From positions 124,001 to 188,000 of the forward strand of contig BCGQ01000009.1 of the NCBI GenBank assembly GCA_001599355.1: 64,000 bases of DNA. Reading direction: 5' to 3'. Positions within the stretch are counted from its first letter, which is position 1. Every line of letters begins with the position of its first letter. Under the pieces are notes generated by a model. That model was not told the DNA's origin. It did no database searches and saw only the letters and a program-made list of their open reading frames with translations. The position numbers and the translations under genes are program-made. This document shows, piece by piece, positions 1-64,000 of the stretch. The stretch comes from Nakazawaea peltata. Taxonomy: Eukaryota; Ascomycota; Pichiomycetes; Alaninales; Pachysolenaceae.

Positions 1-262
1 TCAATTTACAGATCTTTAATGTAGAGATTTTACCTCTCAGTAAATGGACCACAATTTACGAGAATCTATGAGTATAGCATGACGTATTTCACATCGGAAT
101 GGTAGCTTGTAGATTTTGAGACAACAATACAACAAAATACTGTGGACCTTTTGATCCCTTTATCACCCCTAGCCCACTTAAAGGGGTAACAAATAACCTC
201 TGTAATCATACTGAGCAAACTATCATTAACAAAAATCACACTGCAAAAAAAAAAAAAAAAAT

Positions 263-335
263 TGGACGAGTCCGGAGTCGAACCGGAGACCTTTCGCATG
301 CTAAGCGAACGCGCTACCAACTACGCCACACGCCC
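263..335 (-). tRNA. tRNA-Ala (anticodon AGC)
   Basis: This is a 73-nt intronless cloverleaf read on the minus strand. The anticodon loop is TTAGCAT and the T arm carries GGTTCGACTCC. The acceptor stem has the G3:U70 wobble that alanyl-tRNA synthetase recognises, and the discriminator base is A. Position 6:67 is a U-U mismatch. A run of 17 T on the transcribed strand (244-260 on +) is the Pol III terminator. The gene is identical to the copy at 6176-6248, which lies in the opposite orientation, and the identity extends a few bases into both flanks. Confidence 0.97.
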
Positions 336-647
336 CAATTGATGAGTGTTCTACCGGTAGTTTCTTACTTGACTCAATACCCTTGAAGTCTACCACCAAA
401 CAAAAGATAGATTCATTACAATTAAATATCTGACCAACAACCTTGAATTTCTTCTATTTGTCGAAAATCTCGTTTCTGATCCATTCTGGCCCTCAGATAT
501 CCACGTCCTCGAAACCTCCTCTCAGCTCCTCCCCCCGCTTACCCCACAATCCCGAGATTTCGCCAGAGGAAAAATCTTGACAGGCATAAAAATTCTCGAA
601 GACTCGAAGACTAGTTCATCAAGAGGGTCCGAAGAAGAATACAAGCC
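336..647. other. Intergenic region upstream of the PPR-like gene
   Basis: These 312 bases separate the minus-strand tRNA from the plus-strand PPR-like gene and must hold the promoter of the latter. The sequence is AT-rich with a pyrimidine-rich stretch around 500-545. No clear TATA box or other gene is seen. Confidence 0.6.
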
Positions 648-3260: not shown

Positions 3261-6023
3261 TTAAAAACCATTGTCGATCAACCATTGATTGACCAGATCA
3301 CCGTCACGAGCTAACCAATCGATCTTGGATTGAATCGACTCTAAAGCTTGAGATAAGGAACGGTCAAATGCCTCGGTGTCGACACTCTTGAAGAACTTCT
3401 CAACTTCTATTTTTTGCTCAGGTTTAGTGAATGAGGTCACGGCAGAGGTGGCTACTGAACCCAACATTGATAATCCTGGTGGTAAAATCTTTGTGATCAG
3501 ATCCCAATTTTCTTTTAACCATTTGAAGGACAGCTCAGCTCCTACCTTATGAGTACTCATAGTACGAAGAGGAATATAAATATCTTGAGCTCTAACGGTT
3601 CCATCTAAGAGAAGAGCAAACGTTTTGTCGAGCAATTTAGTATCTTCAAAGGCACCTAAAGCATATAAAGCCTCGACTTTTTGATCTGAAGATTTAGAAG
3701 TCTTATAAATGTTAACAATAGCTTCGTAATCAGCAATCTTCCCGTCTTTAGCAACAGCCTCATAAACTAAGACTCTCAAATTAGGATCAATAGCACTTTG
3801 ATTACCAGCGACGTATTCGTCAAACATTTTTCTACAATCTTTATGAACGACCTTGATTCCGGAAGAAATAGCATCAGAGAACAACAATGTCTTGAGACGT
3901 TGGTCAAGGTAAGAATCATCAGACTTAAATTCATAACCCAAATCATTCAATTTCCAATCTATGAGAGAAGCGGCAAAGTTTTCCAAACGTTGTTTAGCTT
4001 TGTCATCCTCAAACATCCAAGTCATTCTCAAAGCTTCAACCAGATTAGATATTTCGGACCACAGGGTGAAAGATTCCTCATGTTTCCAAGCATTCAAGAT
4101 CGATAATAAATTCAAAGTCGAGGCGTATCCAGAACGAGCCAAAGAAGAGGCATCTCCAATGAGACCAGCTCTGTCCTCAACAGAAAGCAATCCCTTACTT
4201 CCATCTTCGGCCAACTTAGTCCATCTACTATCAGGGTACAAAGTACGGTAGATTCCGGCCTGGTCGGCATTCAATTTGTAGAACTCAATGTCTTCTAAAT
4301 CAACTACAGTAGATCTGTCGTACAAAACAAGAGAACCATCTACACCTTCTTTAGTTCTCAAGGATAAAAAGACTGGGTACAATACCTTATCATCAGCAGG
4401 ATTAGCATCACCAGAACTCAAGAATCTATTCTGAGTGATCTTCAACTTGTTTCCGTCCTCAACTACAGTCAAAACAGGATACCCAGCCTTCTTGGTCCAG
4501 ATATCCATGACTCCAACGATATCTTCACCTGACTCTTGTGATAACAGTTCCCACAAATCCGAAGTCTTGGTGTTGGTCCAAGCATGTTCGTGTAAATATC
4601 TGGAAACACCTTTAATGAAAACATCCTCCCCGATCCAATTGGCAATCATTTTCAATACTGATGATCCCTTGGCGTAAGAGATGGAGTCAAAAATCTGGTT
4701 GATTTCAGAAGTCTTTCCTACAGGAACCTCAATAGGATGGGAAGATCTCATGGAATCCAAAGACATGGCTTGATGAAGAGTGGTGGAAACATATTGTTCC
4801 CATACCTTCCACTCTGGGTATTCATGGTTGATGAAGAACCACGACATCCAAGTAGCAAAACCTTCATTCAACCATAAACCTTCCCACCATTCCATAGTGA
4901 CCAAATCTCCAAACCATTGGTGAGCTAATTCATGAGCAACAACCTCAGAGACTCTCTCTTTATGAGAAGCTGTAGAAGTGGACTCATCAAGCAACAAATC
5001 AACTACTCTATAAGTGACCAAACCAAAGTTCTCCATAGCACCGGCAGTGAAATCGTGAATACCAATCATGTCCATTTTAGGTAATGGGAATTTGAAATCG
5101 AACTTGGAATCATAGAATGCCAATACTTTCAGAGCGAGATTCATCAGGTAAACACCTTGTTCTTTCAACCCAGGGGTAGTGTAGACTCTAATTGGAACAC
5201 GATAGTCGTTGGTCTCGACGTATTCCAACTCACCGACAACAAATGCTACTAAATAAGTCGACATTACAGGTGTGGAGTTGAAGACAACCTTCTTTTTATC
5301 ATCAGAAACCTCAATAGTTTCCTTGACATCCATGTTAGACAAACAAGTTAACTTCTTATCAGAAATCAAACTGATGTCGAACACGGCTTTAGCATCTGGC
5401 TGATCATACGATGGGAAAGCTCTCCGAGCATCTGTAGGCTCCATTTGAGTAGTTGCCAAGTATTTGGTCTCACCATCTTGTTCATAGGTGGATTTATAGA
5501 ACCCAGACATGTTATCATTCAAAATACCTGTGTAGTTCAAATATAAGTAGACGATATCGTACTTAAGAGAGGTCGAGAACTCGAAAGTGGTGGTACTTCC
5601 AGCACTGGAGGTCTTCTTTGGTGTATAAGAATGACCATTGGCGTATAAAACAACCTCATTGAACTTAATATCCAAGGCATTCAAAGAGATGAATTTGGAT
5701 TTCTTATCGAGCACGTCAAAAGTGATGTTCAAGGAGCCGTAGAAGTCGAAAGTGGAGAAGTCTGGCTCCAAAGTCAAGTCATATCTGGTTGGTTTGACAT
5801 TCCCAGGCAATATTTCCTTCTTTACCGGGGATTTTTTGTCGGAACTAGTTCAATTGTTAGAATCAAATAATGAAGCGCCGTTTGATAGAAGCAACACTTA
5901 CTCAAAGCCCGTGTCATTGAAGAGGTAGATCCCAATGAGGAGGAGTAGAGAGGCTAATAAGGTGAGGTAGAACCTCTTCTTCCTCTCTGTGAGGGAGGTA
6001 TACTGAGCGAATTCCAAGTTCAT
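3261..6023 (-). CDS. APE2: M1 zinc aminopeptidase with N-terminal membrane anchor (one intron)
   Basis: Gluzincin aminopeptidase of the Ape2/Aap1 (puromycin-sensitive) family, which removes N-terminal residues from peptides. The gene has two exons: 6023-5902 and 5844-3261. Splicing yields 901 residues. The GAMEN substrate motif is followed by HELAH at about residues 345-349 and the third zinc ligand in NEGF, 19 residues later, so the catalytic site is complete. Exon 1 encodes 40 residues containing a basic stretch (ERKKR) and then about 18 hydrophobic residues, predicting a type II signal anchor. Exon 2 has no ATG at the proper start, which supports the splice. S. cerevisiae APE2 also has an intron near its 5' end. 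AAP1 is the alternative name because the two are paralogues in S. cerevisiae. The gene is convergent with the PPR-like gene. Confidence 0.92.
5845..5901 (-). other. Spliceosomal intron in APE2
   Basis: This 57-nt intron begins GTAAGT on the minus strand, has the branch-point-like TTCTAAC and ends ACTAG. Removing it joins codon 40 (Phe) plus GA to TTCCGAC and keeps a single reading frame through the M1 domain. The first branch-site pyrimidine deviates from the usual TACTAAC. Confidence 0.9.
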
Positions 6024-6175
6024 TGGTCAATTGGGGTAGAGTCTTGTTGTGAACTGTGGATTTTGTGTCAAATAGCAATAAAATTAGAGTGAACGGCGCT
6101 AAGAAAAACTTAATTAGGAAATCGAGAAGTTGGATGTGAGTATGTATGTTTTAAGATAAAAATAAATATAAATTG

Positions 6176-6248
6176 GGGCGTGTGGCGTAGTTGGTAGCGC
6201 GTTCGCTTAGCATGCGAAAGGTCTCCGGTTCGACTCCGGACTCGTCCA
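6176..6248 (+). tRNA. tRNA-Ala (anticodon AGC)
   Basis: Identical 73-nt copy of the gene at 263-335 but on the plus strand. It shows the anticodon AGC, G3:U70, a canonical B box (GGTTCGACTCC) and an eight-T terminator directly downstream. It sits between the divergent promoters of APE2 and MET18, about 150 bases upstream of the APE2 start codon. Confidence 0.97.
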
Positions 6249-12635: not shown

Positions 12636-15437
12636 ATGAGTGAACCTTTGGTGATCCAGAACACCTTTTTGCCTGCTAAGTACAGCTTGCAGCTCGAAGT
12701 TGGGGCATCTAAGCCGAATTTTCAGGGTGACGCCGAGATTGAAGTGGTCAGGAACGTTAAGTCCGTTGGGGGAGATCAAGAACAGGGTCTTGAGTTGATT
12801 TTCAATGCTGCTAATCTTGTGATTGTTCTGGCGGAGTTTGTTGACGAATTAGATGGTGTCACCGAGAAGGCCAAAATCAGACTTGACCGCCTGAAAGAAT
12901 TGGTCTATTTCTCCACCGAGTCATCGCATTTCAATGGGTTGGCTGGGTTCAAGTTGAAATTGAAGTATATGGGTAGAGTTTCCGGCATTAAGACTTATAA
13001 GGACTTGACAGCTGGTGTCTTTAAGACTAACTATTTGAATGGAATCACCGGAAGAGCAGATAATTATATTGTATCTACTCATTGTCAGCCTAAATATGCC
13101 AGATGGATCTTCCCTTGCGTAGACGAACTTACATGTAAACCAAGATTTGAATTATCTATTAAGACCGATATCAAATTTACCTGTTTGAGTAATACAGAAG
13201 TAGTCGATACCCAGATTTTGGACGACACAAAGAAATTGGTCAAATTTGCTACTTCTCCTCCAATGGCTCCTTCAATTTTCGGATTTTGTGTTGGAGATTT
13301 TGAGTATGTTGAGCAGTTGGTAAAGATAAGCGATGTTACTTTGCCAGTTAGAGTATACACTCCTATTGGAGAATTGAGTAATCTGGCCTATGCCTTGAAT
13401 GTAGCTTCATTGTCTTTACCAGAGTTGAGCTCTCTGTTTGGTTCCAAATTCCCTTTGAACAAGGTCGATTTCGTAGCTCTTCCTTTCTTGACCGATTCTG
13501 CAATGGAAGACTGGGGGTTGATTCAAATACAACAATCTTATCTCTTAGTAGAGCCTGAATTGATACTGGCCAAAGAGTCGCTGGCTCATTTGAAGACTGT
13601 GCGTGAGGTCATCGTTCATGAGTTGGTCCATCAATGGATGGGAAATATGGTCACTTTCGACGACTGGACCCATTTGTGGGTCAATGAACTGTTTGCTACG
13701 TTCATGGCTCATGCAATTTTACTGAAATTGAACCTTAACCAAGCGGATGTCTCTATTTTCGTAGAAAAATGTCAAAGCGATTTACAAAGTTTGTTAGATC
13801 AAGACTCTTTACCGACTCTGAATCCAATTTTCGTCAGACATGCTTTGGATGTCAAGACTACACAAGACCTGTTGTCTCATGAACTGTATGTAAAAGGTAT
13901 TCCATTATTCAGATCAGTAGCCAATTTGTTCAACGATAGCTCCAATGACGATTTCAGCGTCTTTTTCTCGGTCATTGGAGATTTCTTGGAACTGTGGAAA
14001 TTCAAGTCTTTCAAACCTGTAGATTTATGGAACTTCATCACCGAGTCTTCAAAAAATACTTCGAAATACAATCTTTCTACTTTCATGCATTCTTGGACTA
14101 GAACCCCGGGGTATCCTATTTTGAGAGTTTCTACTACTGAAGACAACAAAGTAAAGGTTGTCCAGCATAGATACTTACATGGAATCAAGATAGAAGAGGA
14201 CCTGGAGTCTTTTGAAGATGTTCCATATCATTGTCCACTTACTTGCCGCGTCAAAGGAGTTGAAAAGACTCCAAGAAGTATTCTTACCGACAGATCTCAA
14301 AAGTTGGATCTCGATCTGAGCAACTTCATTTCTTGTAATGTTAACTACTCCAATATTGTCAGAGTTCAATATTGTTCAGAACTGATCTTTGACAATATTG
14401 CTAGTGCCATAAAAGACAATTCTATAACCCCCTTGGACTTATATCTGATCTTGTCTGATCTTTCTAAGTTCTTGGGCCAAATATATCAAACGGAGACTGA
14501 TATTGTTGGATTTATCAAGATCATGGATCTGTTGAGCTCTAAAACAGTCAAATACACTCTGTTTGAGCCTTTAGATTTACTGTTAGTCATCTTGCAGAAT
14601 ATTTGGTTCCTGTTTGAGCTGACATCGAAGGAGGCCAAGATTCAAAGATGGGTCAATGACATTTTAATCAAACTTTTGAACTCCAAATTCAAGTGGGAGA
14701 ATGTCAACTACGCAAAGATGTCTGATGCCGAGTTGAGATGTAGAAACTCTATCTTAACCATGCTGGCCAGAATCTGTTCTGCCCCAGAAGTCTCAGTAGT
14801 TATAAAGAAGTTATATAGAAATGTAGTTCATGGTCCAAAGGAGTCAGTTCCTGTTGAGATGTTGAACGGAATCTTGAGTGGTGCCATGAAGTTGAGTAAT
14901 CTGCAGAAGGAGTACAAGGAGATTTTAGGATTGGCCAAACTGCCTCTGTTGACTGTCAATAATATCATGGGTTCTCTGCAAGATGTCCGTGGGGCTTTAC
15001 AAACATCTGCTGTAATTGCCTTAGGATATGTCTCGAATCATGAGTTAGTTGTCAAGACTTTGAACTTCGTTATGACCAACATCGACTCCAAGTTGATCGA
15101 GTTGGCTTTAGTAGGATTGACTCAACAGAACCGTCAAGTACAAAGACAATTATGGGACTGGTTCAAGTTACATTTTAACACTTGGAATGTCAAGTCTTCC
15201 AGAGAGGGATCTGACTATCTGAAGCAATTGAGATCAACCTTAATCAATATCTGTAAAATCGTGTTCGGTATGATGATTGTCAATGGGTCAGACAAGGATT
15301 TGGTCGAAGATTTCGTGAAAAAGAATCATTCTACTGATAAGACCAACCTTGAAGATATTTTAGAAGCAGTTAAATACGAGACAGGGGAGAAATTGAAGTT
15401 AGTTGAACTTGAAGACACTGTCGTCAAGCATATTTAG
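12636..15437 (+). CDS. TMA108: Tma108, ribosome-associated M1-like aminopeptidase
   Basis: A 933-residue M1-family protein, near the length of S. cerevisiae Tma108 (946 aa), which binds translating ribosomes through the N termini of a subset of nascent chains. The zinc motif HELVH lies at residues 328-332, with the distal Glu in VNELFATF. The canonical GAMEN motif is replaced by SAMED, a feature that separates this family from APE2. The rest is an M1 N-domain and a helical C-domain. ATG at 12636 is chosen. The frame is open to a GTG two codons earlier, which is not a plausible yeast start. The stop lies only 23 bases from the convergent serine-rich gene. Confidence 0.9.
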   Translation: MSEPLVIQNTFLPAKYSLQLEVGASKPNFQGDAEIEVVRNVKSVGGDQEQGLELIFNAANLVIVLAEFVDELDGVTEKAKIRLDRLKELVYFSTESSHFNGLAGFKLKLKYMGRVSGIKTYKDLTAGVFKTNYLNGITGRADNYIVSTHCQPKYARWIFPCVDELTCKPRFELSIKTDIKFTCLSNTEVVDTQILDDTKKLVKFATSPPMAPSIFGFCVGDFEYVEQLVKISDVTLPVRVYTPIGELSNLAYALNVASLSLPELSSLFGSKFPLNKVDFVALPFLTDSAMEDWGLIQIQQSYLLVEPELILAKESLAHLKTVREVIVHELVHQWMGNMVTFDDWTHLWVNELFATFMAHAILLKLNLNQADVSIFVEKCQSDLQSLLDQDSLPTLNPIFVRHALDVKTTQDLLSHELYVKGIPLFRSVANLFNDSSNDDFSVFFSVIGDFLELWKFKSFKPVDLWNFITESSKNTSKYNLSTFMHSWTRTPGYPILRVSTTEDNKVKVVQHRYLHGIKIEEDLESFEDVPYHCPLTCRVKGVEKTPRSILTDRSQKLDLDLSNFISCNVNYSNIVRVQYCSELIFDNIASAIKDNSITPLDLYLILSDLSKFLGQIYQTETDIVGFIKIMDLLSSKTVKYTLFEPLDLLLVILQNIWFLFELTSKEAKIQRWVNDILIKLLNSKFKWENVNYAKMSDAELRCRNSILTMLARICSAPEVSVVIKKLYRNVVHGPKESVPVEMLNGILSGAMKLSNLQKEYKEILGLAKLPLLTVNNIMGSLQDVRGALQTSAVIALGYVSNHELVVKTLNFVMTNIDSKLIELALVGLTQQNRQVQRQLWDWFKLHFNTWNVKSSREGSDYLKQLRSTLINICKIVFGMMIVNGSDKDLVEDFVKKNHSTDKTNLEDILEAVKYETGEKLKLVELEDTVVKHI

Positions 15438-20888: not shown

Positions 20889-23800
20889 ATGGTGCTAGAA
20901 GACCGCATTGAACGACAAGAAGTCGTGTACAGTGGCAGATCAGATCAGACTCGAGATGGATCCGAGCTTTTACTGCCAGAAACGTACTACCAAGCACCTC
21001 AATTGGCGTCAGCTGATAGCGTTAGCAGTATGGTGACACCGGTGACCACGAGTTCACCCCAATTTCACAGTATCGTGACCCCTCAGCTCCCTCCTCCTCC
21101 TCTCATGACACCAAATCAAAGAGTCGAGATGAGAACCGTGCCAGAACATAGCCAGGAGGTGCCATTTGTGCCCCGTTCAAACGTCGACGTACTGCAAGAT
21201 AACCAAAATATCGCATTGACCCAGAATTTGGACCTCCAAAGTGCCCATAACCAACCCGATTCTCAACAGATCCAGCCAGTGGAAAATTCTTCTCATCAGA
21301 TCGGCTTGAACGGTACTCAGACCTCAAATGGAACCACTTCGCTCGAAGGAAGACGTCTTACACTCATAACAGGTCAAGAACTCAATGACATGCGTAGAGA
21401 TTTAGCCACCGACCAGAAGACCCCCGCCGAGTATACCCTTCATATTCTTTTCACGCAGTTTGTTCGTCATGCTGAACGTAAGCTCAATTTATGCCTCAAT
21501 AACTACTCTTTAGAGACGGAACCACCTCTCGTGGAGTTGCTCTCTGAAGGAGCCGACCCCGAGTTCGATAAGATTATCGAGTCCTTAGGTCATATCGCCA
21601 AAAGAAAGCCCAAATCGGTCATCGATTCCGTCATGTTCTGGAGGAAAAGTAAATCGGAAGTGTCTATGCTTGCGGCCTCAGCTGTGGAACGGAATTTGAA
21701 GATATTGAGACTGGAACAACGTAGAGTCCAACAGCAGCATCAACAGCAACATCAAAATCAACAGTTGCTGCTTCAATCTCTGACTCAAAAATCCCTGCAT
21801 TCTCACCAAAGAAGTCTTACTCGTCAGGCATCTCTCTCGTTCCTCAAAGGACATAAAAACTCGGCCAGTTCGACGTCTACCAACTCCGGAGCAGCTAGCC
21901 ATGCCTCCTCCGTGCCTAAAATCCAACTAGATCCTACAACTAAAGCCCTCATCCACTCACTCGAGGTCAAATTAGAAGAATCTCGAGTCACTGCGATCCA
22001 AGGCGAACGTAAATCACTTATTTCTATATATATTCTCTGTCGAGTGCTCATAGCCGTCGTGAGACAGACCCCAATCGAGGTCTTGGGAGACGACTTGGGT
22101 GACAAACTCGAAGAAATCATTTATACTCAGTTAAAAACGACGAACCCGCTCCTGCTCAGTGAGAGTTCGATCCGGTCGGCTAATTGGAACTTATTCGCCG
22201 AGCTCTTGGGCCATATGTCCGAGAGAAGGTTCCTCAATGTCTCGGATCGGTTTATCGCTGACTTGGAGAAGGTTCCTCCTCTTGTAACTAATGGCCAGCA
22301 ATGTTTCATGCTCAAAACTGAGCCGGCTACTCCTCTAGAGTACATTTTCAACGAGACTGGACACTCTGATTACATAATGGAGAGTCTCAGCTTGCTCATT
22401 CATGGAATGAGATACTTGAAACTCACCCATTATCCTCTTGAGCAATTTGAAGAAAGTGCAGACTTCCTTCAAAGTGTAGGCAAGTTCTATTCCAAGTCCG
22501 GGACCGAACTGGTGATCGTACTGTTCTCTGAGGTTCTCAATTTGCTTCTTCTTCCTCTAGCAGGTATAATAACAGCCGAAGTGAACCATCCCCAATGGAG
22601 AGATGCTCTAGATCTTATATATACTAAACTGTTCCGTATCTTAAAACAAGAGCCTGAGAAGTACTGGGAATGTGGACTCAATTTGATCACCACAGTTCTT
22701 ACGGTGTCTCCACCGGAGGTCTTTTTGGAGAATTGGCTTCAAATTGTCGAACTGAACACCGCAGTATTGAAGCCAAAGGTTCCAGCCGAGGACAAGATCA
22801 TTTACGTCACATGTATGTCCCGTCTTTTATGGGTCTACTTGAACCGTTGCACTGAGTCGTTGAATACGACTCACCGTACTTTAGAGCATGTCTTTGGGTT
22901 ACTTTTCTTCGGTAATGGAGGAATTGGAGGGGCTAATGGAGCTACCACCCTCGCTGCCACTCGTAAACTGTCATGGTTGACCCTGGAACATGCTTTAGTC
23001 GAGGTATTGGTATATATGATCCGTATTGTAGGCCACTCTTCTTTAAATTATACTCTTGAGAACATTTTACTCCCATTGGTCAAGTTGGGATACGGTGGAG
23101 GGGCTAATTTGGACTCCGTTTCTCCTCTGTACTTGACCTTGGGTATTAAATCTTATATAAGTATCTTACAGGACTACGAGACCAAACTGAAACCTTGTTT
23201 CCCTAGCAATGAGATCATCGGCAACATGCAACAGGCTCAAATTACCCGTTCGCAGGAACAATTGTCGTCGTTGATGCATCAGAGACCGGTTTTCCAGAAA
23301 GAATCTTCGAACGCGGCTGTATCGGAGGAGATTAGTCTGGTATTCCAACAGGTATTCACATTGTTGGACGAACAGGTTGGTCTGCCGACTTGGATGGGAG
23401 AAGGAATTGGGGGTGTTGGGGCTGGTTCGGGCTCCGGAACCGGCGCCGGTACCGGCTCTTCCTTCAAATCTCCCCTCTACTCTTTTCTTCATGGTAAAGA
23501 TCATACAGTCCATAATTCTCGTCCTGTTAACCTCGAACTCTTCGCCTCTATGATCGACTCAACTCCCTTCGCCGCCGATCATATGCCTTTGAAACGTTTA
23601 GTCGAGGTTCTCGTCCGTAATGCTGTTCATCATGACTCTAAAGTGGCTACTGCCGCTTTAGCAGCACTTAAAGTACTCGTAGTTCGTAAAAATCCTAAGA
23701 TATTGGTGTCCGTGTTTGCCAAATACGCATTCCAGTTGGATGACACTCCGAAACAGACCACTAGTCTCGAATTTTTGACCTCTTCCGAGTATTTACAGCT

Positions 23801-26800
23801 TCTTAAAATATATGTGGAGTTACTTGGATGTTGGTTAGAGTCTCTTAAGGTGACTTTGACGAGTCTTGAGAAACTGAGAGACGAGACTGTGGCTCTGCCT
23901 ATCGCTGGTCATCCATTGCAACTGCTCGCAGCCACGTTATCACCCCAAGATGATCCCCAACTGTCCCAACAACTCATCAGTGATGAGTTAGAGTTGAAAA
24001 ATATCATCACAATCGTCGAAGAAGTAGAAGGAAACGGGCTTTTCTTCTTATGTTCGCAGGATACGACTATCAGAGGATTGGGATTGCAGATATTGAGGAT
24101 CATCTCCGAGTTTGATAAGGTGATTGGGGGAATAAGCGAGGTTAAGAGGGGAAAATCGACCAGTGGAAGCTCTGGTTCAGCCAATGGACCAATTTCTGGT
24201 CCGATTTCTGGCCCAGCTGCTACTTCTTCTGGTCACATGCCTAAACATACCCGTACTCCCTCGAAGTTCGCAGCAGAAGCCGGCACAAGACTCATTCATG
24301 TACTTGAATCTATAGATTTCTTCGATCTCATCGCCCCGATGGAAGACTCAGTCAGTCTTGCCGAACGTTCTCGCTTAAAAGAACTCAGATCCAAACGTAA
24401 AAAGAGTATTTTAGTGTATTTGGCCCGTTCGGACTACGGCATCGACTCCACTCTTTGGTTCAAAATCTTCCCCCAGATCCTCACGGTTATTTTCCAAAGA
24501 TGTGTTATGCCTGTAGCCCTTTGTCGGAGTGTAGTATGTATAAGATTAGTTCAGATGTATGATAGAGTATTTGAGTTTGGATCTAGTGGATCCGGGGCTG
24601 TAGTTTCCCCCAATGGGTCCACATCCAACTCACTCAATTCTTCCCTGGTGTCTGGTCGTCGTTCTAGAGCTGCTTCTCATGTCACAGACCCTCAAAAGCC
24701 GCTTGGATCTCACTCCAAGCTTGTCATGACCCATTATTCACCTCCAGAATTACTCGTAGAACAATGGAGAATCTACCTTGTGTTTGCATGCTCGACTTTA
24801 ACAGCCACCTATGACCAAAGAATGCACATTCCAAGCTCATCGGTATCATCACTTGGAAGTTCTTCCAACGGCACGGGAACAACCTCAGGGTTCACCAAAT
24901 CCCATTCCCGTAAGAGATCCCAGCAAGTGTTCACCGTACAACATCAGAAGATCACCAGTGCAAGGTCGATCTTCAAAATGGTGATCCCACTTCTTGGAAC
25001 TCCGCAAGCCATTGTAAGAGATGCTGTGGTGGCTTGTTTGTCGTCGATTAACATCAATATTCTCCGTAGTTTTATAGAAAGCGTTCTCCCGATCATGGAA
25101 TCTTGGATGGACGAACAAAGAAGCAAAGATCCATGGCATGACAGAGTCAAAGTCGAAGTTGCAAGGGTTTTGAATAACGTCACGGCTACTTTCCTTACCC
25201 AGAAGGACGCTTATGGTGACGACTGGATCTTAGCTAACCTCGTGACCATCGTCAAGTATCTCAAGACCTTCTTATCCAATCCAAAAGTCCAGTCAGGCCT
25301 AGAATATCAACGTCTCCGTAGATATTTCGCCGGAATCTTGGAAAACGTCTACTCTGGAGTCTTATTGACCGAGGAACCTGAAAAATGGTTCCCATTTGAG
25401 GCCCGGATAAGTTGTTTCCAATTCTTGGAGGAGTGGTGTGGTCATGGTCCAGGAAGTCTGACTGCTGACCGTCGTTATAGAGAGATGGCTAAAACTAACG
25501 GTAGTTCTTCCCGTCGTCCTTCGGCTCCAGTTGCCAAGGAAGCTCTCCAAGTGTCTACTGCGGTCGAATTAGAACGTCCACTGCTCGAAGTAGCAGCTTC
25601 CAGTTGTATGGCCACGATCTGTGCTAGTAGTATCTCCAAGCTTGTTCATGACGAGTCTGGATCTGTAGTTATGTCATTTGACGTTCCAGGTTTGCTCCTG
25701 TGGGTTCATTCCATGTTCGAATCGTCCAATGAGCGTATATTTTCTATAGCCAAGAGGGCTTTGAGTAATATTCTCGATTGTAATGGTGATATGAAGGAGA
25801 TTTACTTGGATGTGATTCATCAATGCTACGTTCTGGAGACACCAGAGGTGATGGAACTGTATTTCTTTGGCTTAACAGAATGTTTGACAGGGAAATTGGA
25901 GAAACAACAGCAGAAACAGGTCGAAACCAGCCTGGATCAACTGCCAATTCTCCCCATCGAAGGTCATCATGTCCTCTCTCTTTGTTTCCTCGCTGTTGGT
26001 AATGATTCTCATCCAATTAGAGTCGCAGCTGCTCGTCTTCTCAAATTGACCGAGCTCCAACTCTATGGAACCACCAATACCGAGCTGATCACCGAGAGAA
26101 TTTGCTCTAAATCCAAATCCGTATATAAATCCGGTCTGTTCCATGCGGCAGCTATCTTCTCCCATGATATTCAGGTGATTTCCGAGCTCACCAGAGTCTT
26201 CCATATAGTAAACACCAGTGCTAGACGTCAAATATTGTCGGCATTGCTCCCATTCTTCAATAGAGTCGAGCTTAAATGCAATGAGCCTCTGTCTATGGAT
26301 AATTCTACAGAGATGGTGTTACATAATTTGTTTGAAATCACTATCAAGTACAGTGATTTAATGCCAAACGAAGTAGAACTGTTATGGGTAGCTCTAGGGA
26401 ATGGAAATGGGGCTCAAAATGTCCGTCAGATCATGAATTTCATCACCTATTACTGTCTACATAAACGTTCTCCATTATTTGTCCAATATTGCAGACAAAT
26501 AGTGGTATATTTATATAGTACTGCTGCTGGAAGTTCTATTTTAGGCGAAATGATTACCAATTTGGAACCAAAGAACATGGTTCCTCAACTGACCGACCCT
26601 TCTCAGCCACAAACTGCCTCAAAACCACCTTCTAACCTTTATATTGCACCTCTTTGGGATGTTCTTGCTAATCCAAAAGAGTCGATATTCTCATTAGGTC
26701 AACTCTCGGTGATTTTCTCGGCAGATTTACTCATTTCACCTCCAGAATCTCTGGTTTCAAAGCTTCCGCTTCTTCTCCACGTCTCCATGGTGCTTTTAGA

Positions 26801-29656: not shown

Positions 29657-29729
29657 TGGACGAGAACGGAGTCGAACCATTGACCTTCTGCTTGCAAGGC
29701 AGACGCGCTACCAACTACGCCACACGCCC
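29657..29729 (-). tRNA. tRNA-Ala (anticodon UGC)
   Basis: A 73-nt intronless gene on the minus strand with anticodon loop TTTGCAA-type context (TGC anticodon), G3:U70 and discriminator A. The acceptor stem and D arm are identical to the two AGC genes, while the anticodon and T stems differ. The B box is GGTTCGACTCC and a run of about ten T follows. It decodes GCA/GCG Ala codons. It is not the CUG-decoding tRNA, which would need anticodon CAG. Confidence 0.96.
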
Positions 29730-51833: not shown

Positions 51834-53585
51834 ATGACTATCGGAACTGTTATGAGCAAAATTGAGCCTAAATGGTGGAAGGAGGCCACTGTTTACCAAA
51901 TCTGGCCAGCTTCTTACAAAGACTCCAACGGAGACGGTTTTGGTGACTTGAAGGGTATTGCCTCCAAATTGGACTACATCAAGTCTCTTGGTGTCGATGT
52001 TATTTGGCTTTCCCCAATGTACGACTCTCCTCAGTACGATATGGGTTACGATATCTCCAACTACGAAGGTATCTATCCTAAATACGGTACTATGGAGGAC
52101 ATGGACAACTTGATCAAGGGTATCCATGATCGTGGTATGAAGATTTTGGTCGATTTGGTTATCAACCATTGTTCTTCTGAGCACGAGTGGTTCAAAGAAT
52201 CCAGATCCTCTAAGACCAACCCAAAGAGAGACTGGTTCTGGTGGAGACCTGCTAAATACGATCTGGATGGTAACAGACACCCACCAAACAACTGGAGATC
52301 TTTCTTTGGTGGTAGTGCCTGGACCTGGGATGAGACCACTCAAGAATACTACTTGAGATTGTTCCTGGAGCAACAACCAGATTTCAACTGGGAGAACCCA
52401 GAGACTAGACAGCTGATTTACAAGTCTGCTGTTACTTACTGGTTAGAGAAGGGTTGTGACGGTTTCAGAATCGACACTGCCGGTTTGTACTCCAAGGTTG
52501 AAGGTTTACCAGACCTGCCAGTTGTAGACCCAGAGAACGAGTTCCAAGACCCAGGACCATGCACTCACAATGGTCCAAGAATCCACGAATTCATCAAGGA
52601 AATGAACAGAGAGTGCTTCAGCAAGTACGACTGTATGACTGTTGGTGAGGTTGGTAGCGGTCAAATCGACCAAGTCTTGAAGTACACCAGTGCTCTGCTG
52701 CACGAGATCGATGAGATGTTCATTTTCGACATTACCGACTTGGGTACTTCTCCAATCTTCAAGTACGACTTGGTTCCATTCACTTTGGCTGACTTCAAGG
52801 AGAAGCTTGTCGGATGTTTCAAGTTCGTTGAGACTTCTGATGCTTGGTCCACTATCTACTTGGAAAACCACGATCAACCTCGTAGTATCACCAGATTTGG
52901 TGACGACTCCACTACCGAGTCTTGGTTACACAGTGGTAAATTGTTGTCTTTGATGGAATCCACTTTGACTGGTACTTTGTACGTTTACCAAGGTCAAGAA
53001 TTTGGTATGACCAACTTCAAGAACTGGACCATCGAGCAATACGAAGATGTTGACCTGTTGAACAACTATAAGATCTTGAAGGCTAAGAACGATCCAAAGA
53101 TCATTGAAAAATTCATGGAAGGTTTGCTGTTGGTTTCCAGAGACCATGCCAGAACTCCAGTCCAATGGGATGACTCTGCCAATGCCGGATTCACCACTCT
53201 GGACAAGACCTGGTTCGGTGTTAACGAGAACTACAAGCAAATCAACTGTGCCTCTCAATTGGACGACCCTCACTCGATCTTGTCCTTCTACAAGAAGCTG
53301 CTCAAGTTCAGAAAGGACAACAAGGACATTACTGTTTACGGTACCAACTTTACCGTTTACGACGAGCTGGACCTCAAGACTTTCTCTTACTCCAAGACTA
53401 CCGCTGACGGATCCAAGACTTTGTACCTGTTCTTGAACTTCAGCAACGACAGTGTCAAGTTCATTAACCACCTTGGTGAGGATACTAAGCTTAAGTTGAT
53501 CTTGAGCAACTACACTGAAGCCGAACCTTCCGACATTACAAGCGATCTTAGACCTTGGGAGGGACGTGTTTTCTATGCTGAGTAA
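51834..53585 (+). CDS. Maltase, GH13 alpha-glucosidase
   Basis: A 583-residue cytosolic alpha-glucosidase, the same length class as S. cerevisiae Mal12 (584 aa), opening EPKWWKEATVYQIWPAS. GFRIDTAGLYSK contains the nucleophile Asp214. The next residue is Thr215 followed by Ala-Gly, as in maltases, whereas yeast isomaltases have Val-Gly-Ser. The acid Glu lies in MTVGEV and the third carboxylate in ENHDQPR. No signal peptide is present, consistent with hydrolysis of imported maltose. Seven CTG codons lie at positions that are Ala in Mal12 (codons 144, 178, 194, 432, 489, 532 and one at the TSA-A site). Confidence 0.95.
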   Translation: MTIGTVMSKIEPKWWKEATVYQIWPASYKDSNGDGFGDLKGIASKLDYIKSLGVDVIWLSPMYDSPQYDMGYDISNYEGIYPKYGTMEDMDNLIKGIHDRGMKILVDLVINHCSSEHEWFKESRSSKTNPKRDWFWWRPAKYDLDGNRHPPNNWRSFFGGSAWTWDETTQEYYLRLFLEQQPDFNWENPETRQLIYKSAVTYWLEKGCDGFRIDTAGLYSKVEGLPDLPVVDPENEFQDPGPCTHNGPRIHEFIKEMNRECFSKYDCMTVGEVGSGQIDQVLKYTSALLHEIDEMFIFDITDLGTSPIFKYDLVPFTLADFKEKLVGCFKFVETSDAWSTIYLENHDQPRSITRFGDDSTTESWLHSGKLLSLMESTLTGTLYVYQGQEFGMTNFKNWTIEQYEDVDLLNNYKILKAKNDPKIIEKFMEGLLLVSRDHARTPVQWDDSANAGFTTLDKTWFGVNENYKQINCASQLDDPHSILSFYKKLLKFRKDNKDITVYGTNFTVYDELDLKTFSYSKTTADGSKTLYLFLNFSNDSVKFINHLGEDTKLKLILSNYTEAEPSDITSDLRPWEGRVFYAE

Positions 53586-54646: not shown

Positions 54647-55474
54647 ATGATAAGAGGGGTTTCAAGAATATTCAGACCATCATCATACTATACACCTATT
54701 AAGATGTGCGCCGCTACATTAACCACTTCTCTGCCAGTTCCACAATCTGAGTCTATGAAGCCAAGTGCTTCTCACCATTCGATGACCGAGAAACTGACTC
54801 CATTTGTTTTAAGCAAATCTTCCTCGTTGGCTGATTTCCTTGCTCAAAATGAGTTGTATGTTGAAAAGATGAATGAGCATCACCCGGAGATTTTCCCTTC
54901 CAACCTGCAAGGGCAAAGTCCTCATACTTTATATATTGGATGTTCCGACTCGAGATACAGTGAGCTGTGTATGAATGTTTTACCGGGAGAAGTATTTGTT
55001 CACCGTAACATTCTGAATGTGATACTGTCTCATGATGTCAGTTCTCTGGGTCTGATCCAATTTGCTGTTGAAGTTTTGAAAGTAAAGAAAATCATTGTTT
55101 GTGGTCACACCGACTGTGGAGGTGTTTGGGCTTCCTTGTCTTCGAAGAAGGTTGGAGGTGTCTTGGACCAATGGCTTTACCCAGTCCGTCAGGTTAGACT
55201 GCATCATTTAAAAGAATTGGCTGAGATTAAGGATCCTCGTGCCAAGTGTCTGCTGTTGAGTGAGTTCAACGTTGTAAGCTCAGTTCAACTGGTCCGTAGA
55301 CATCCATCCCTGTTGAAGCTGTTGAAGAGAGGTGACATTGAAGTTTACGGTTTGATTTACGACGTAGCTACCGGACATTTACGTGAAGTTGACGTTCCAG
55401 AAATTAATGACGCCGACTCCCTGTTCCATGTCAGCGACGAAGAGGAGGATCTGGAATTCAACCCTCACGATTAG
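54647..55474 (+). CDS. NCE103: Beta-carbonic anhydrase Nce103
   Basis: A 275-residue beta-class carbonic anhydrase (221 aa in S. cerevisiae) that interconverts CO2 and bicarbonate for carboxylation reactions. Zinc ligands are Cys99 (GCSDSR), His154 and Cys157 (CGHTDCGG), and the Asp101-Arg103 dyad is present. GQSPHTLYIG and VLPGEVFVHRN match Nce103. The first 19 residues (MIRGVSRIFRPSSYY...) are basic and may target mitochondria. A second ATG at codon 20 (54704) gives a 256-residue form aligned with the usual start. TATAAATA is only about 47-54 bases upstream of the first ATG but 104-111 upstream of the second, so the shorter form may dominate. Confidence 0.93.
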   Translation: MIRGVSRIFRPSSYYTPIKMCAATLTTSLPVPQSESMKPSASHHSMTEKLTPFVLSKSSSLADFLAQNELYVEKMNEHHPEIFPSNLQGQSPHTLYIGCSDSRYSELCMNVLPGEVFVHRNILNVILSHDVSSLGLIQFAVEVLKVKKIIVCGHTDCGGVWASLSSKKVGGVLDQWLYPVRQVRLHHLKELAEIKDPRAKCLLLSEFNVVSSVQLVRRHPSLLKLLKRGDIEVYGLIYDVATGHLREVDVPEINDADSLFHVSDEEEDLEFNPHD

Positions 55475-55551: not shown

Positions 55552-57039
55552 CTAATTGCTCGTATCATCTGTTTCGGTTACAATGAGTCTCCATCTAACT
55601 GCGTTCCAGAAAGAACTGTAACTCCAAGTTAAATCGGAGGCTCCTTGCATGTAGCCTGAATATCTGTTAAACTGTTCCGACATGGATCCTTTACTGTCTA
55701 CATGAGCTTGGATCACTTTGAGGAATGAGTCCAGGTATTCAATTAATGACACCAGCGTTAATTCCAGGTTCTCAGGTAGTTCTAACATGTTCAGGATCGC
55801 AATTCCAGTTTCTTTGCTAACTCCGTTGAACCGGAGGTGATAGGCCAATTTATAAAGTAACTCTGCCAGTGACAGGGTCAGTAAAAACCATGGATTTCCC
55901 TCAGAAACTCCATTACCATTGTATCTGTCTTCTGGATATCTTCCAAGGCCAATACCAGAAGTACTAATTGGTGATCTATTCAACGGATATCTATATTTCA
56001 TATCTTGAACCAACAGTGTCAACGTATTCAACACTTTCGGATCAGTGACATCAAAAGGTACCTCAAAAAGCGAGGCCTGGTTCGGATCTAAAGGTGAATG
56101 GACAGTGATAGACAGGATGATCGTTGCAATATCTAAACCACAACGGGAATTCTTTAATACTAAGGCAGGTGTCTCGATCAAATATGGAACCTGAGAAGTC
56201 TTAAAGCCATATATCTCTATAAAAGATCTAAGGGCGAAGAACAGTTGCTCTAGTTCAGATTTAAATGACTGATCTTCGTCGTCTACGCAATATGTATCAC
56301 AGAGCTGGATTCCAAGCTGCAACAGTTTCAACTGAGTGACAGCGGTGAAAAGATGTTTCAGATATACTTCTTCCCATAAATCGAAACCGTCAGCACCCCA
56401 ATACTTTGTTATATAATTTAAATCATATTTAACTATCTCATTGAAGATCCAACTGGGGTCCAAAGTGGCAGAAGATCCAAATAAATTCAAGTATTTCAGA
56501 ATAGCGATGACTCTAAGACCAGGACCATCCCTTTGCGGACGACCCCAGTTAGCAGTGAAAGGAGTATTATCAGTCATAAATTTAGGTTCTCCCAAACCCG
56601 ACAAGTCGTCGAATGTGCCACTTGGATTGGCAACACGCTGGATCTGATGAGCATTCTTGATGTAACTCTCTACAACAGGTTGTAAAATTGGAACACTAGA
56701 GGTATTCCCATCCATATACTGGATCAAAGTACTCATCGTTAAAGCAGCATCACGAACCCACTGATAAAAATAGTCAGGGTTCAGTTTAGAAGGTGACAGG
56801 ATCACAGCACCTTCAGCAACAACCCCCTTCAAATTCTCATTCAACCCCCCAATATTTGCCAAGACGCGGTCGATAGAAAACTGTCTTTGCTCAAAGATCC
56901 AGGAGTCAAATAAATCCCGGGACTCTTCATCTGAAAGAACCTTTTGTGACCCCCAACCCCACCAACTTCCCCAAACTGGAACCGCCTCCAGTACCCGCGT
57001 TATCAGCACAGTAACTGCGATGACCTTGACTAACTTCAT
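55552..57039 (-). CDS. Secreted glucoamylase, GH15
   Basis: A 495-residue glucan 1,4-alpha-glucosidase that releases glucose from non-reducing ends of starch and maltooligosaccharides. The N terminus MKLVKVIAVTVLITRVLEAV is a signal peptide, so the enzyme is predicted to be secreted or cell-surface. The catalytic (alpha/alpha)6 domain shows NPDYFYQWVRDAALT, WGRPQRDGPGLRV, GFDLWEEV with the general acid Glu, GLGRYPEDRYNG, GNPWFLLT and SMSEQF with the general base Glu. No starch-binding domain is present. It resembles Gla1 of other yeasts and the vacuolar/sporulation Sga1 of S. cerevisiae. It is convergent with NCE103 (77 bases). Confidence 0.93.
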   Translation of the reverse strand: MKLVKVIAVTVLITRVLEAVPVWGSWWGWGSQKVLSDEESRDLFDSWIFEQRQFSIDRVLANIGGLNENLKGVVAEGAVILSPSKLNPDYFYQWVRDAALTMSTLIQYMDGNTSSVPILQPVVESYIKNAHQIQRVANPSGTFDDLSGLGEPKFMTDNTPFTANWGRPQRDGPGLRVIAILKYLNLFGSSATLDPSWIFNEIVKYDLNYITKYWGADGFDLWEEVYLKHLFTAVTQLKLLQLGIQLCDTYCVDDEDQSFKSELEQLFFALRSFIEIYGFKTSQVPYLIETPALVLKNSRCGLDIATIILSITVHSPLDPNQASLFEVPFDVTDPKVLNTLTLLVQDMKYRYPLNRSPISTSGIGLGRYPEDRYNGNGVSEGNPWFLLTLSLAELLYKLAYHLRFNGVSKETGIAILNMLELPENLELTLVSLIEYLDSFLKVIQAHVDSKGSMSEQFNRYSGYMQGASDLTWSYSSFWNAVRWRLIVTETDDTSN

Positions 57040-61174: not shown

Positions 61175-61191
61175 AGTTTGAATTCTATTAA

Positions 61192-63159
61192 TTATTTCAG
61201 ATCATCCTCACTAATACGGAAAGTGTCTTCAATTTCATCTCTTTGTCTGTCTAAATTGACCACCGAGCTACCTGGAGTGTTACTTGAGAAGTCACCGAGC
61301 TCAAGGTCGAGCTCCTGGTCAACGGACATGTAGTTAACACCACCTCTGAATCTTCTATAGAGACGTCTTATTCTTTTGATCAACAATGCACGACCTTTTG
61401 TTCCCAATAAGAAGTAGAGGATGATTGAGAAGATGATCAAGACAAAGAGGGGACTATAAGTGTGATGGACGTCATCCCAATCGAAGTCGTGGTCATGGTC
61501 ATCATCGTGGTCATCATGATCATGATCATCATGGTGTGGTTTGCCTTTATGATCAGGTTTATAGTCAGGTTTACGGTCAGGTTTGTCGTCCGGTTTATCG
61601 TCGGGTCTACCACCGTGCATATCTTCACTGGTGATAGACGGTCTAGCATCGATACCGTCCATCTCACCTCCATATTGATACAAATTAGGTGAGGATTCAT
61701 GATAAAATCCAACATGAATGGCATCATTAACCTTCTCAATCTCCAGATAATAATGAGCAGACTCCCAAACACTGTATAAAACGGCTCTTCCTAAAGTCCA
61801 TGAGAATTCTGAACCATTGATCAGTTCCAGAACTCTGAATGGAGAGATATCAGCCGAAGTAGCCGACTCCAATTTAGGGAAACCTAAACCACGATGCAAA
61901 ACGTTCAAGATCCAAGAAGATTTGAAACATAATTCTGACAATTCATCATCTGAAAGTAATCCAAAGCTGGTGGTCGTTTCATCATCGTTATAATGATCCA
62001 ACTCGGACCATGGGGTCTCACACAACTTCTCAGTCTCCAGATAGAAAGATTTATAACTATAAGCATTTCCAAATTTGGAGATATCATCGATACCCAACAT
62101 ATTGGAGACCAGATCCCAATAACCCGAGACACCAATGAACTTATCAACTTCGAAATCCAAAGAAGGTAAAGAATTCCCAAGAAGACATGACGAAATATCA
62201 TTAGGATTGGAAATTGAAGTGGAGCACTCGGAAGTCTCAGATTCTAATAATAACGGATAGATCAAATCCATGCATTTGGTGAAATTTCCAACACCCATGA
62301 CACCCTTCTCTTCTAAACCTTTTGGAAGACAAGGATCGGTGGGCATATCACCGTCTAAACTCTTGATATAATTCTCATGCAGTTGATAAATACCGAACCC
62401 TAAGAAAGAGGAACTGAAAACGTTATAATTCAAGTCAGGAATGTACTTACCTGTGGTCAGTAACTCCACTTTGAATAACAGAGTGTTATGTTCCAGTTGT
62501 TCTGTGGAATTGGGTTGGAAACTGATCTGAGCAGATGCTCCTCCCATATCTAAAAGACCATAAGTGGAATGGTTTTTACCATGATGATGTTCCAGGGGCA
62601 GATCAAACAGACCCATAAGATAGTTGGTCAGGATCCAGCCATAAAGTCCCTCGACATCACCATCGATAATATTGATATGAGAAGAACAATCAGGAAGATA
62701 GAAGTCATAATTCTCTTGGATATATTCACAAGCATTAGCCAAGATCAGATCCTTCTCCTTTGGTTTCAATAATCTCATCCCCAGAGTAGCATGTAAAAAC
62801 ACAGGAGTACGATGGTGCTGTGATTCGGGGATGATCTTCATCACACTTTTCATCAACTTCTTGATATGCTCTTTACCCACCAGGCCGGGTCTTTCGTTGA
62901 ATGAGGAGATCCCGGGCTTGATTTTCTTATGCCATGAAGGGTCTGTTCTCACTTTAGGAAGTTTTCCATAGTTGGATTTCAGCATTTCTGGGTCCTTCTT
63001 AACCTCATATTCATACAAAGCTTCCGGGTTTAACCAGTTATAGACGTAGGCTCTAGAGCCGGTGGAGCCGGAATCGATGATCACAATGTAGTCGTAAGGT
63101 ATGCCATTGGGGTCAGTGACGGGACCTTTCTTCTTTGATTTCCGAGGACTTAATTCCAT
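61192..63159 (-). CDS. YND1: Golgi apyrase Ynd1
   Basis: A 655-residue GDA1/CD39 nucleoside di-/triphosphatase (630 aa in S. cerevisiae). Apyrase conserved regions are visible: ACR1 IDSGSTGSRAYVY (about 28-40), ACR2 LHATLGMRLL, ACR3 GDVEGLYGWI and ACR4 GLLDMGGASAQISF. A single membrane span (FVLIIFSIILYFLLG) lies around 588-602 with a basic cytosolic tail. Ynd1 hydrolyses GDP/UDP left after Golgi glycosylation. Just before the span is an unusual charged segment with five K/R-P-D repeats followed by a His/Asp-rich stretch. CTG codons should be read as Ala. Confidence 0.95.
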   Translation of the reverse strand: MELSPRKSKKKGPVTDPNGIPYDYIVIIDSGSTGSRAYVYNWLNPEALYEYEVKKDPEMLKSNYGKLPKVRTDPSWHKKIKPGISSFNERPGLVGKEHIKKLMKSVMKIIPESQHHRTPVFLHATLGMRLLKPKEKDLILANACEYIQENYDFYLPDCSSHINIIDGDVEGLYGWILTNYLMGLFDLPLEHHHGKNHSTYGLLDMGGASAQISFQPNSTEQLEHNTLLFKVELLTTGKYIPDLNYNVFSSSFLGFGIYQLHENYIKSLDGDMPTDPCLPKGLEEKGVMGVGNFTKCMDLIYPLLLESETSECSTSISNPNDISSCLLGNSLPSLDFEVDKFIGVSGYWDLVSNMLGIDDISKFGNAYSYKSFYLETEKLCETPWSELDHYNDDETTTSFGLLSDDELSELCFKSSWILNVLHRGLGFPKLESATSADISPFRVLELINGSEFSWTLGRAVLYSVWESAHYYLEIEKVNDAIHVGFYHESSPNLYQYGGEMDGIDARPSITSEDMHGGRPDDKPDDKPDRKPDYKPDHKGKPHHDDHDHDDHDDDHDHDFDWDDVHHTYSPLFVLIIFSIILYFLLGTKGRALLIKRIRRLYRRFRGGVNYMSVDQELDLELGDFSSNTPGSSVVNLDRQRDEIEDTFRISEDDLK

Positions 63160-63592
63160 GGTGGTTTGATGGACTGAGAACAGAGTTATTGGTTAAGTAA
63201 TTGATCAATTAAGCGCTGAAGGATAATTTTGGGTGGTGAGGGGTGCACGACTAAATAAATCACGAGGGACGTGCATGAAAACCTAATATCCGATTTAGGA
63301 AATTTAATACAACATATCAAATGTGGCAACTGCGTAACTGCGCAACTGCGCAACTGCGTGGAACTGCCAGAGATGCGTGACTCTGCTTGTGTATTGCTGC
63401 GCAGCCCCAGTTTACCCTTGCGCTTCCACTGAGACAACCGAGACGCGTCTTCTAACCCATTGAGGTGGTGCGTCAAGCAGATTTTTTTACCCATTTCGGA
63501 TATTGTAGGGGTCTATTTTTTCAATAGAAACCTCATTTAAAATACTTAGTGGGAGATAGTTACTGGGGTGTTAGTACCAAGAGGTATCGATA
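63160..63592. promoter_or_regulatory. Divergent promoter with AACTGCGCA tandem repeat
   Basis: Four to five tandem units of AACTGCG(C/T)A/G occur at about 63326-63368 between YND1 and the terminal gene. GC is higher than the surroundings. No TATA box was recognised. Confidence 0.65.
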
Positions 63593-64000
63593 ATGAACGT
63601 TATACCGGAGGATTATGATAGTGAAGACTATCAGCAATATGGGGGGTCATTAGCGGAGACGATATATGAGGGGAAGTCCAAGATTCAACTGGCTGGATTA
63701 CGACAGACTTCTTTGGCTCAAATAGGAGAGAAGAAGCGCTATAGACCACCTACTATGATTGCGGCTACTCAGATACCGGCGGGTCAGGGACCTGGTCAAC
63801 GTAATGTTAGAAGTAGTAGTAATTCGAGTTTTTATACAACTGGATCTAATGGGTCTGGTGGTAATGGGAGTGGTACTTCGTTGTATCGCCAACCTATGGG
63901 CCAACCAATGGGCCAACCAATGGGTCATATGGGACCGCCAATGGGACAACCAATGGGACAACCAATGGGACAACCTATGGGACAACCTATGGGGCATATG
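63593..64000 (+). CDS. 5' part of an unidentified gene with Met-Gly-Gln-Pro repeats
   Basis: An open frame of 136 codons from ATG 63593 to the window edge. It starts MNVIPEDYDSEDYQQYGG, followed by a basic stretch (GEKKRYRPPTMI) and a Ser/Gly/Asn linker. From about residue 100 it enters a repeat of QPMG, with GHM variants, that continues beyond the window. The CTG at codon 34 should be Ala. I do not recognise the family; proline/glutamine-rich repeats of this kind occur in many cytoskeletal and RNA-binding yeast proteins, so function is left open. Confidence 0.75.
   Translation, partial: MNVIPEDYDSEDYQQYGGSLAETIYEGKSKIQLAGLRQTSLAQIGEKKRYRPPTMIAATQIPAGQGPGQRNVRSSSNSSFYTTGSNGSGGNGSGTSLYRQPMGQPMGQPMGHMGPPMGQPMGQPMGQPMGQPMGHM

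What the first reader, a model, noticed from the sequence alone, without database searches (positions are those of the whole stretch)
1..64000. CUG codons appear to encode alanine across the window
At least 15 CTG codons in six unrelated genes fall where closely related yeast proteins have Ala. The genes are the maltase, the transketolase-like gene, PRS5, the SAT4-type kinase, the arabinitol dehydrogenase and, less clearly, NCE103. Conserved Leu positions in the same genes mostly use TTG, TTA, CTC or CTT. This matches the CUG-Ala nuclear code known from Pachysolen and relatives and rules against a standard code. It also means every standard-code translation of this contig is wrong at CTG codons.
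Basis: partly seen in the sequence, partly recalled or inferred. Interest (0 to 1): 0.92.

Follow-up and report, generated by a model that had tools for sequence, protein, structure and literature searches.

The report
Yeast reading CUG as alanine
In this yeast genome (probably a Nakazawaea) CTG codons line up with alanine, not leucine, in related proteins, and the genome carries a gene for a CUG-reading transfer RNA that is predicted to be charged with alanine, so CUG is likely read as alanine, a code change already known for this yeast group.

Summary
In seven window genes, 64 of 77 CTG codons could be aligned to solved structures: 28 face Ala, 7 Ser, 2 Leu, like true Ala codons (54, 16, 10 of 142) and unlike Leu codons (108 of 220 face Leu). 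In three family alignments CTG fills 0 of 193 Leu-encoded conserved-Leu columns (26.6 expected); of 11 CTG columns with a dominant residue, 7 are Ala, none Ser. One CAG-anticodon tRNA gene was found: short variable arm, G3:U70, A73. A TAO3 tree groups the window with Pachysolen. Weak points: summed over all columns Ala beats Ser only narrowly, two of three families alone lean to Ser, and the arabinitol dehydrogenase sites do not support Ala. Leads: CUG is common here (about 20 per 1000 codons), and the only tRNA-Leu(UAG) found carries a 120-base folded intron.

The parts
51834..53585 (+). maltase-like alpha-glucosidase; CTG codons 178 (52365-52367), 194 (52413-52415), 228 (52515-52517), 489 (53298-53300) in Ala-dominated columns
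   Evidence: 120 homologues; Ala 0.93, 0.92, 0.78, 0.54 of column weight; PF00128
39518..40789 (-). PRS5-like phosphoribosyl pyrophosphate synthetase; CTG codons 87 (40529-40531), 196 (40202-40204), 338 (39776-39778), 405 (39575-39577) face Ala
   Evidence: aligned to ribose-phosphate pyrophosphokinase 2
37279..39396 (+). transketolase-like; CTG codons 148 (37720-37722) and 588 (39040-39042) face Ala in both transketolases that I tabulated
54647..55474 (+). NCE103-like carbonic anhydrase; CTG codons 123, 185, 215, 222, 225 face Ala in 9s4g
55552..57039 (-). glucoamylase (GH15); CTG codons 81, 239, 387, 389, 391, 429 face Ala in the best structure (6 of 13 alignable, of 17)
3261..5510 (-). M1 aminopeptidase; CTG codons 122, 127, 660 face Ala in the best structure (3 of 8)
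12636..15437 (+). TMA108-like M1 aminopeptidase; CTG codons 250 (13383-13385) and 352 (13689-13691) in Ala-dominated columns
   Evidence: Ala in 31 and 26 of 39 homologues
20889..29315 (+). TAO3/PAG1-like cell-morphogenesis protein; CTG codons 545 (22521-22523), 581 and 1831 (26379-26381) in Ala-dominated columns; codon 747 (23127-23129) is a counter-example (Glu 0.94)
61192..63159 (-). GDA1/CD39-family nucleoside phosphatase; 7 of 16 alignable CTG codons (of 18) face Ala
34774..36642 (+).
   Evidence: PF00069; no structure at the cut-offs set
263..335 (-). tRNA-Ala(AGC), ordinary; shares G3:U70 and the T6.T67 mismatch with the genome's CAG tRNA
6176..6248 (+). tRNA-Ala(AGC)
29657..29729 (-). 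tRNA-Ala(TGC)

Best explanation
CUG codons in this yeast nuclear genome are likely translated as alanine by a tRNA with anticodon CAG that is predicted to be charged by alanyl-tRNA synthetase. Shown: CTG sites behave like Ala codons and not like Leu codons in alignments, and the one CAG tRNA gene found (G000:C4:81426-81498, outside the window) has a short variable arm, a G3:U70 pair and A73. From established knowledge: alanyl-tRNA synthetase reads G3:U70 and not the anticodon, so such a tRNA would insert Ala at CUG. Inferred: with no tRNA-Leu(CAG) found, Leu is served by the other five codons. The organism is probably Nakazawaea peltata or a close relative.
For: Seven genes against solved structures: CTG faces Ala 28, Ser 7, Leu 2 of 64; Ala codons 54, 16, 10 of 142; Ser codons 29, 74, 6 of 197; Leu codons 9, 4, 108 of 220. 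Three family alignments, 3666 columns, CTG masked: of 61 codons 59 recover their standard meaning, AGC is a tie of N and S, and CTG is the one clear misfit, Ala 28.9 bits, Ser 25.1, Leu -64.8. At columns with one residue at 0.6 or more, CTG gives Ala 7, Ser 0, Leu 1, others 3 of 11. CTG fills 0 of 193 Leu-encoded conserved-Leu columns at the 0.7 level, 26.6 expected, and 1 of 222 at the 0.6 level, 30.6 expected. CAG tRNA with G3:U70, A73 and no long variable arm; one match by BLAST. No match for a Leu- or Ser-type CAG tRNA pattern. TAO3 tree of 18 rows: window, an unnamed relative and Pachysolen form one clade, SH-aLRT 100. NCBI places Nakazawaea and Pachysolen in the order Alaninales.
Against: Ala against Ser is close when all columns are summed (28.9 to 25.1 bits), and two of the three families taken alone lean to Ser: TMA108-like 12.6 to 12.1, TAO3 11.0 to 3.2. 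Against the Pachysolen orthologues Ala leads Ser by only 4.2 bits over 60 sites, with 13 Ser and 12 Ala. At the 0.4 threshold CTG has 9 Ala to 6 Ser, lower than true Ala codons at 87 to 13 (P 0.018). Some CTG codons sit in columns where Ala is odd, such as TAO3 codon 747 (Glu 0.94). The arabinitol dehydrogenase gives 0 of 2. Six of the seven structure alignments used a query translated with CUG as Ala, which could tilt the pairing slightly to Ala; transketolase used the standard code. In the tree the window row was flagged for unusual letter make-up. No peptide data.
Confidence: 0.95

Rival explanations
1. CUG is read as Ser, as in the Candida (Ser1) or Ascoidea (Ser2) clades.
For: Two of three family alignments taken alone score Ser a little above Ala.
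Against: No conserved-Ser column at 0.6 or more holds CTG: 0, against 98 true Ser codons, while 7 conserved-Ala columns do. Structure alignments give A:S 28:7. The CAG tRNA lacks the long variable arm of tRNA-Ser. The gene tree puts the window outside the Candida clade.
Confidence: 0.02
2. CUG is ambiguous: mainly Ala with a real share of Ser or Leu, for example by wobble reading of CUG by tRNA-Leu(UAG).
For: The CTG columns are a blend, Ala leading Ser only narrowly; a tRNA-Leu(UAG) gene exists; the CAG tRNA has G37, a base tied to Leu mischarging of Candida tRNA-Ser(CAG) in PMC5951914. One earlier study is said to have suggested 10% Leu at CUG in Pachysolen (passage).
Against: In TAO3, CTG codons lie more often in poorly conserved stretches, which alone could give a blend: 31 of 54 are alignable against 2221 of 2808 codons overall; in the other two families 22 of 27 (880 of 933) and 11 of 12 (565 of 583). 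Leu is rare at CTG sites. The same passage calls the 10% mistaken and gives over 99% Ala in Pachysolen.
Confidence: 0.04
3. Standard code, with the pattern due to chance or misalignment.
For: Isolated sites only: 2 of 64 CTG codons face Leu in structures, 1 of 11 dominant-residue columns is Leu.
Against: 0 of 193 conserved Leu columns (P 4e-13); Leu 2 of 64 against 108 of 220 for true Leu codons.
Confidence: 0.005

Closest known systems
CUG-Ala nuclear code of Pachysolen, Nakazawaea and Peterozyma (NCBI table 26, number recalled; Krassowski et al. 2018, PMC5951914)
   Same: CUG at Ala positions; CAG tRNA with Ala marks; no tRNA-Leu(CAG) found; same clade by gene tree.
   Different: That paper says CUG is relatively rare in clades that changed code; here it is about 20 per 1000 codons. 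It says the tRNA came from tRNA-Ala; here, outside the anticodon loop, the body is as close to tRNA-Val(TAC), 49 of 66, as to tRNA-Ala(AGC), 46 of 66, among 16 tRNAs compared.
CUG-Ser codes (Ser1 Candida clade, Ser2 Ascoidea and Saccharomycopsis)
   Same: Same codon reassigned, with a new CAG tRNA.
   Different: Amino acid and tRNA class differ.
Long-intron tRNA-Leu(CAG) of some Leu1 yeasts (134-318 bases, PMC5951914)
   Same: A leucine tRNA of the CUN box with an unusually long, folded intron.
   Different: Here it is tRNA-Leu(UAG), intron 120 bases, in a CUG-Ala yeast.

Membership tests
CUG-Ala nuclear code | CTG codons align with Ala in relatives | tested here: met
   28 of 64 Ala, like true Ala codons 54 of 142
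CUG-Ala nuclear code | CTG codons do not align with Leu | tested here: met
   0 of 193 conserved Leu columns; 2 of 64 sites
CUG-Ala nuclear code | CAG-anticodon tRNA with G3:U70 and A73 | tested here: met
   G000:C4:81426-81498, one match
CUG-Ala nuclear code | no tRNA-Leu(CAG) competing | tested here: inconclusive
   0 matches to one Leu/Ser-type pattern; the same pattern without the anticodon has 24 matches, many of them Leu and Ser tRNAs, but a deviant gene could be missed
CUG-Ala nuclear code | phylogenetic place with Pachysolen, Nakazawaea, Peterozyma | tested here: met
   TAO3 tree; one gene, and of the named genera only Pachysolen was present
CUG-Ala nuclear code | Ala at CUG in peptides | not testable with these tools
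   needs mass spectrometry
CUG-Ser code | CTG at conserved Ser positions | tested here: not met
   0 CTG in conserved-Ser columns at 0.6 or more; 2 at 0.5
CUG-Ser code | CAG tRNA of Ser type (long variable arm) | tested here: not met
   variable region of 5 bases; no Ser-type match

The most novel reading that the evidence does not exclude
CUG has become one of the main alanine codons here (about 30% of all Ala codons), and the yeast keeps it clean by throttling its only competitor: the one tRNA-Leu(UAG) found, which could wobble-read CUG as Leu, is held back by a 120-base folded intron, and its own codon CUA has nearly been abandoned. The CAG tRNA may itself be a Val-type tRNA body refitted with an alanine acceptor stem.
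Probability: 0.15. Interest if true: 0.55.

Novelty: already known. Interest (0 to 1): 0.27.

Why it matters
Sense-codon reassignment in nuclear genomes is rare, and a standard-code translation of this contig puts Leu at about 2% of residues where Ala is likely. The code of this clade is published, so the main value is a confirmed case with a high CUG load and a testable lead on how Leu misreading could be held down.

Tried and rejected
Rejected: a standard code and a Ser code (see rivals). The first tRNA pattern was swamped by chance: 70 and 64 matches on the two strands against 64 and 66 for the control, and its list was cut. Among those listed, one pair of identical matches read by eye as tRNA-Tyr, and one match was a tRNA-Leu(AAG) (ARAGORN). 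The Rfam tRNA search scored 63 of 608 candidates, so the tRNA inventory is incomplete. A Val(CAC) origin for the CAG tRNA was looked for and left open: three patterns showed no Val(CAC) gene that I could recognise by eye, but they are not exhaustive. Searching viral contigs with a window protein gave nothing.

Rows and sites dropped: the TMA108-like profile used 37 of 91 homologues (P0003-P0039; P0001 and P0002 left out as likely same-code kin); TAO3 used 118 of the 120 listed of 209 (P0092, P0093 left out); maltase the 120 listed of 7998. Columns with under 70% of weight filled were dropped. The TAO3 tree used 17 of the 120 homologues, picked by hand for spread. In the structure comparison I pasted mainly the alignment blocks that hold CTG sites and counted the best match per gene, so the Ala, Ser and Leu yardsticks come from the same blocks; 13 of 77 CTG codons in the seven genes had no aligned partner. 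Labels such as S. cerevisiae TKL1, S. stipitis TKT, PSA and Sf_GLU1 are recalled; the calls name only the molecule.

Full report
What was checked. The window is 64 kb of a eukaryotic genome of 11.63 Mb in 11 contigs, at G000:C9:124001-188000. It holds 25 ORFs of at least 150 aa with 307 CTG codons, 19.8 per 1000.

Codon evidence from solved structures. I aligned window proteins to their structural relatives and read the residue facing each CTG in the best match. Over seven genes, 64 of 77 CTG codons had a partner: Ala 28, Ser 7, Leu 2. In the same pasted blocks, true Ala codons give Ala 54, Ser 16, Leu 10 of 142; Ser codons Ala 29, Ser 74, Leu 6 of 197; Leu codons Ala 9, Ser 4, Leu 108 of 220. 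CTG does not differ from Ala codons (A:S, P 0.81) and differs from Ser (P 9e-8) and Leu (P 2e-13). Six of the seven queries were translated with CUG as Ala, a possible slight tilt. The arabinitol dehydrogenase gives 0 of 2, and the SAT4-type kinase was not testable at the cut-offs used.

Codon evidence from family alignments. For the TMA108-like aminopeptidase, TAO3 and the maltase I built profiles from 37, 118 and 120 homologues, with CTG masked, and scored each codon against 20 amino acids. Of 61 codons, 59 recover the standard meaning, AGC is a tie (N 15.5, S 15.5), and CTG is the one clear misfit with Ala 28.9, Ser 25.1, Leu -64.8 bits. The Ala lead over Ser is small: the aminopeptidase (12.6 Ser, 12.1 Ala) and TAO3 (11.0 Ser, 3.2 Ala) lean to Ser alone, the maltase is clear (13.6 Ala, 1.5 Ser). 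At conserved columns the question resolves: with one residue at 0.6 or more, CTG gives Ala 7, Ser 0, Leu 1, others 3 of 11; 98 true Ser codons but no CTG lie in conserved Ser columns. At 0.5 it is Ala 9, Ser 2, Leu 2 of 23; at 0.4 Ala 9, Ser 6, Leu 2 of 32. CTG fills 0 of 193 Leu-encoded columns at the 0.7 level, 26.6 expected, and 1 of 222 at 0.6.

The tRNA. A pattern for Ala-like CAG tRNAs (19 matches against 13 for the control) included G000:C4:81426-81498, which ARAGORN folds as a tRNA with anticodon CAG, printed as 74 bases with one base beyond A73 and labelled Leu from the standard code. Base 3 is G, base 70 is U, base 73 is A, and the variable region is 5 bases, so it is not of Leu or Ser type. 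It shares the T6.T67 mismatch with the genome's tRNA-Ala. BLAST finds one match, itself. A pattern for Leu- or Ser-type CAG tRNAs finds none. That alanyl-tRNA synthetase does not need particular anticodon bases is stated in PMC5951914; that it reads G3:U70 is established knowledge, recalled.

Where it belongs. A TAO3 tree of 18 rows groups the window with an unnamed relative and then Pachysolen tannophilus, SH-aLRT 100 each, next to Kuraishia and Komagataella; the window row was flagged for unusual letter make-up. A table row in PMC5499181 lists Nakazawaea peltata JCM9829 with 11.7 and 11, which fits 11.63 Mb in 11 contigs. The next row, Pichia membranifaciens, with 11.6 and 11, fits the numbers as well, but Pichia belongs to the Leu2 clade, against the tree and the codon data. 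The column meanings are my reading, so the species is probable, not shown. NCBI puts Nakazawaea and Pachysolen in the order Alaninales.

Papers. Of PMC5951914 I read parts 1-3 of 5 and passages; it defines the Ala clade as Nakazawaea, Peterozyma and Pachysolen. Of PMC8645108 I saw passages: CUG is Ala in Pachysolen and Nakazawaea. Of PMC6692504 and PMC5499181 I saw passages. So the finding is right and already known.

What may be new. First, CUG is abundant: 19.8 per 1000 in the window and 21.2 per 1000 in 42,058 codons of 98 open stretches of at least 250 codons from 69 loci elsewhere; these loci lie around tRNA and pattern matches and some frames may be spurious. That is close to GCT (21.7) and 28 to 32% of Ala codons if CUG is Ala. 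PMC5951914 says CUG is relatively rare in such clades. Second, the only tRNA-Leu(UAG) found (G000:C4:804518-804725, minus strand) carries a 120-base intron that folds into a long hairpin; precursor z-score -6.25, 0 of 200 shuffles as stable. CTA is rare (1.7 and 2.2 per 1000). Since this tRNA could wobble-read CUG as Leu, slow maturation could protect the Ala meaning; this is inference. The listings and the passages showed no report of a long tRNA-Leu(UAG) intron in this clade, but I did not open every listed paper (PMC5304391 and PMC8178436 not opened), and supplements could not be read. Third, outside the anticodon loop the CAG tRNA matches tRNA-Val(TAC) at 49 of 66 bases and tRNA-Ala(AGC) at 46 of 66, the best two of 16 tRNAs compared; the Val likeness is in the D and anticodon arms, the Ala likeness in the T arm, variable region, 3' acceptor strand and A73.

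Verdict. Observation confirmed, interpretation supported, novelty low.

Noticed in passing
L109:69-276 (-), G000:C4:804518-804725: The only tRNA-Leu(UAG) gene found has a 120-base intron after base 37 that folds into a long hairpin (precursor z-score -6.25).
   Followed up: partly
window ORFs and 69 other loci: CUA is nearly avoided (1.7 and 2.2 per 1000) while CUG is common (19.8 and 21.2 per 1000).
   Followed up: partly
G000 contig C9, including window 263-335, 6176-6248, 29657-29729: The six tRNA-Ala(GCN) genes found all lie on one contig of about 0.6 Mb (size inferred from the other contigs); the CAG tRNA is on C4.
   Followed up: no
L096:1500-1572 (+), G000:C4:81426-81498: The CAG tRNA has a D arm matching tRNA-Gln at 15 of 16 bases, Val-like D and anticodon arms, an Ala-like 3' end, and a G at position 37.
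   Followed up: partly
whole genome G000: No tRNA-Val(CAC) was recognised with three patterns although GTG is used 12.7 per 1000 in the window.
   Followed up: partly
window 39518-40789: The PRS5-like protein carries an insert of about 90 residues (roughly codons 100-190) that the structures lack, with four CTG codons.
   Followed up: no
G000:C6:161560-161820 and G000:C5:373521-373778: Two mitochondrial-carrier domain matches contain an in-frame stop (TAA, TAG), perhaps introns.
   Followed up: no
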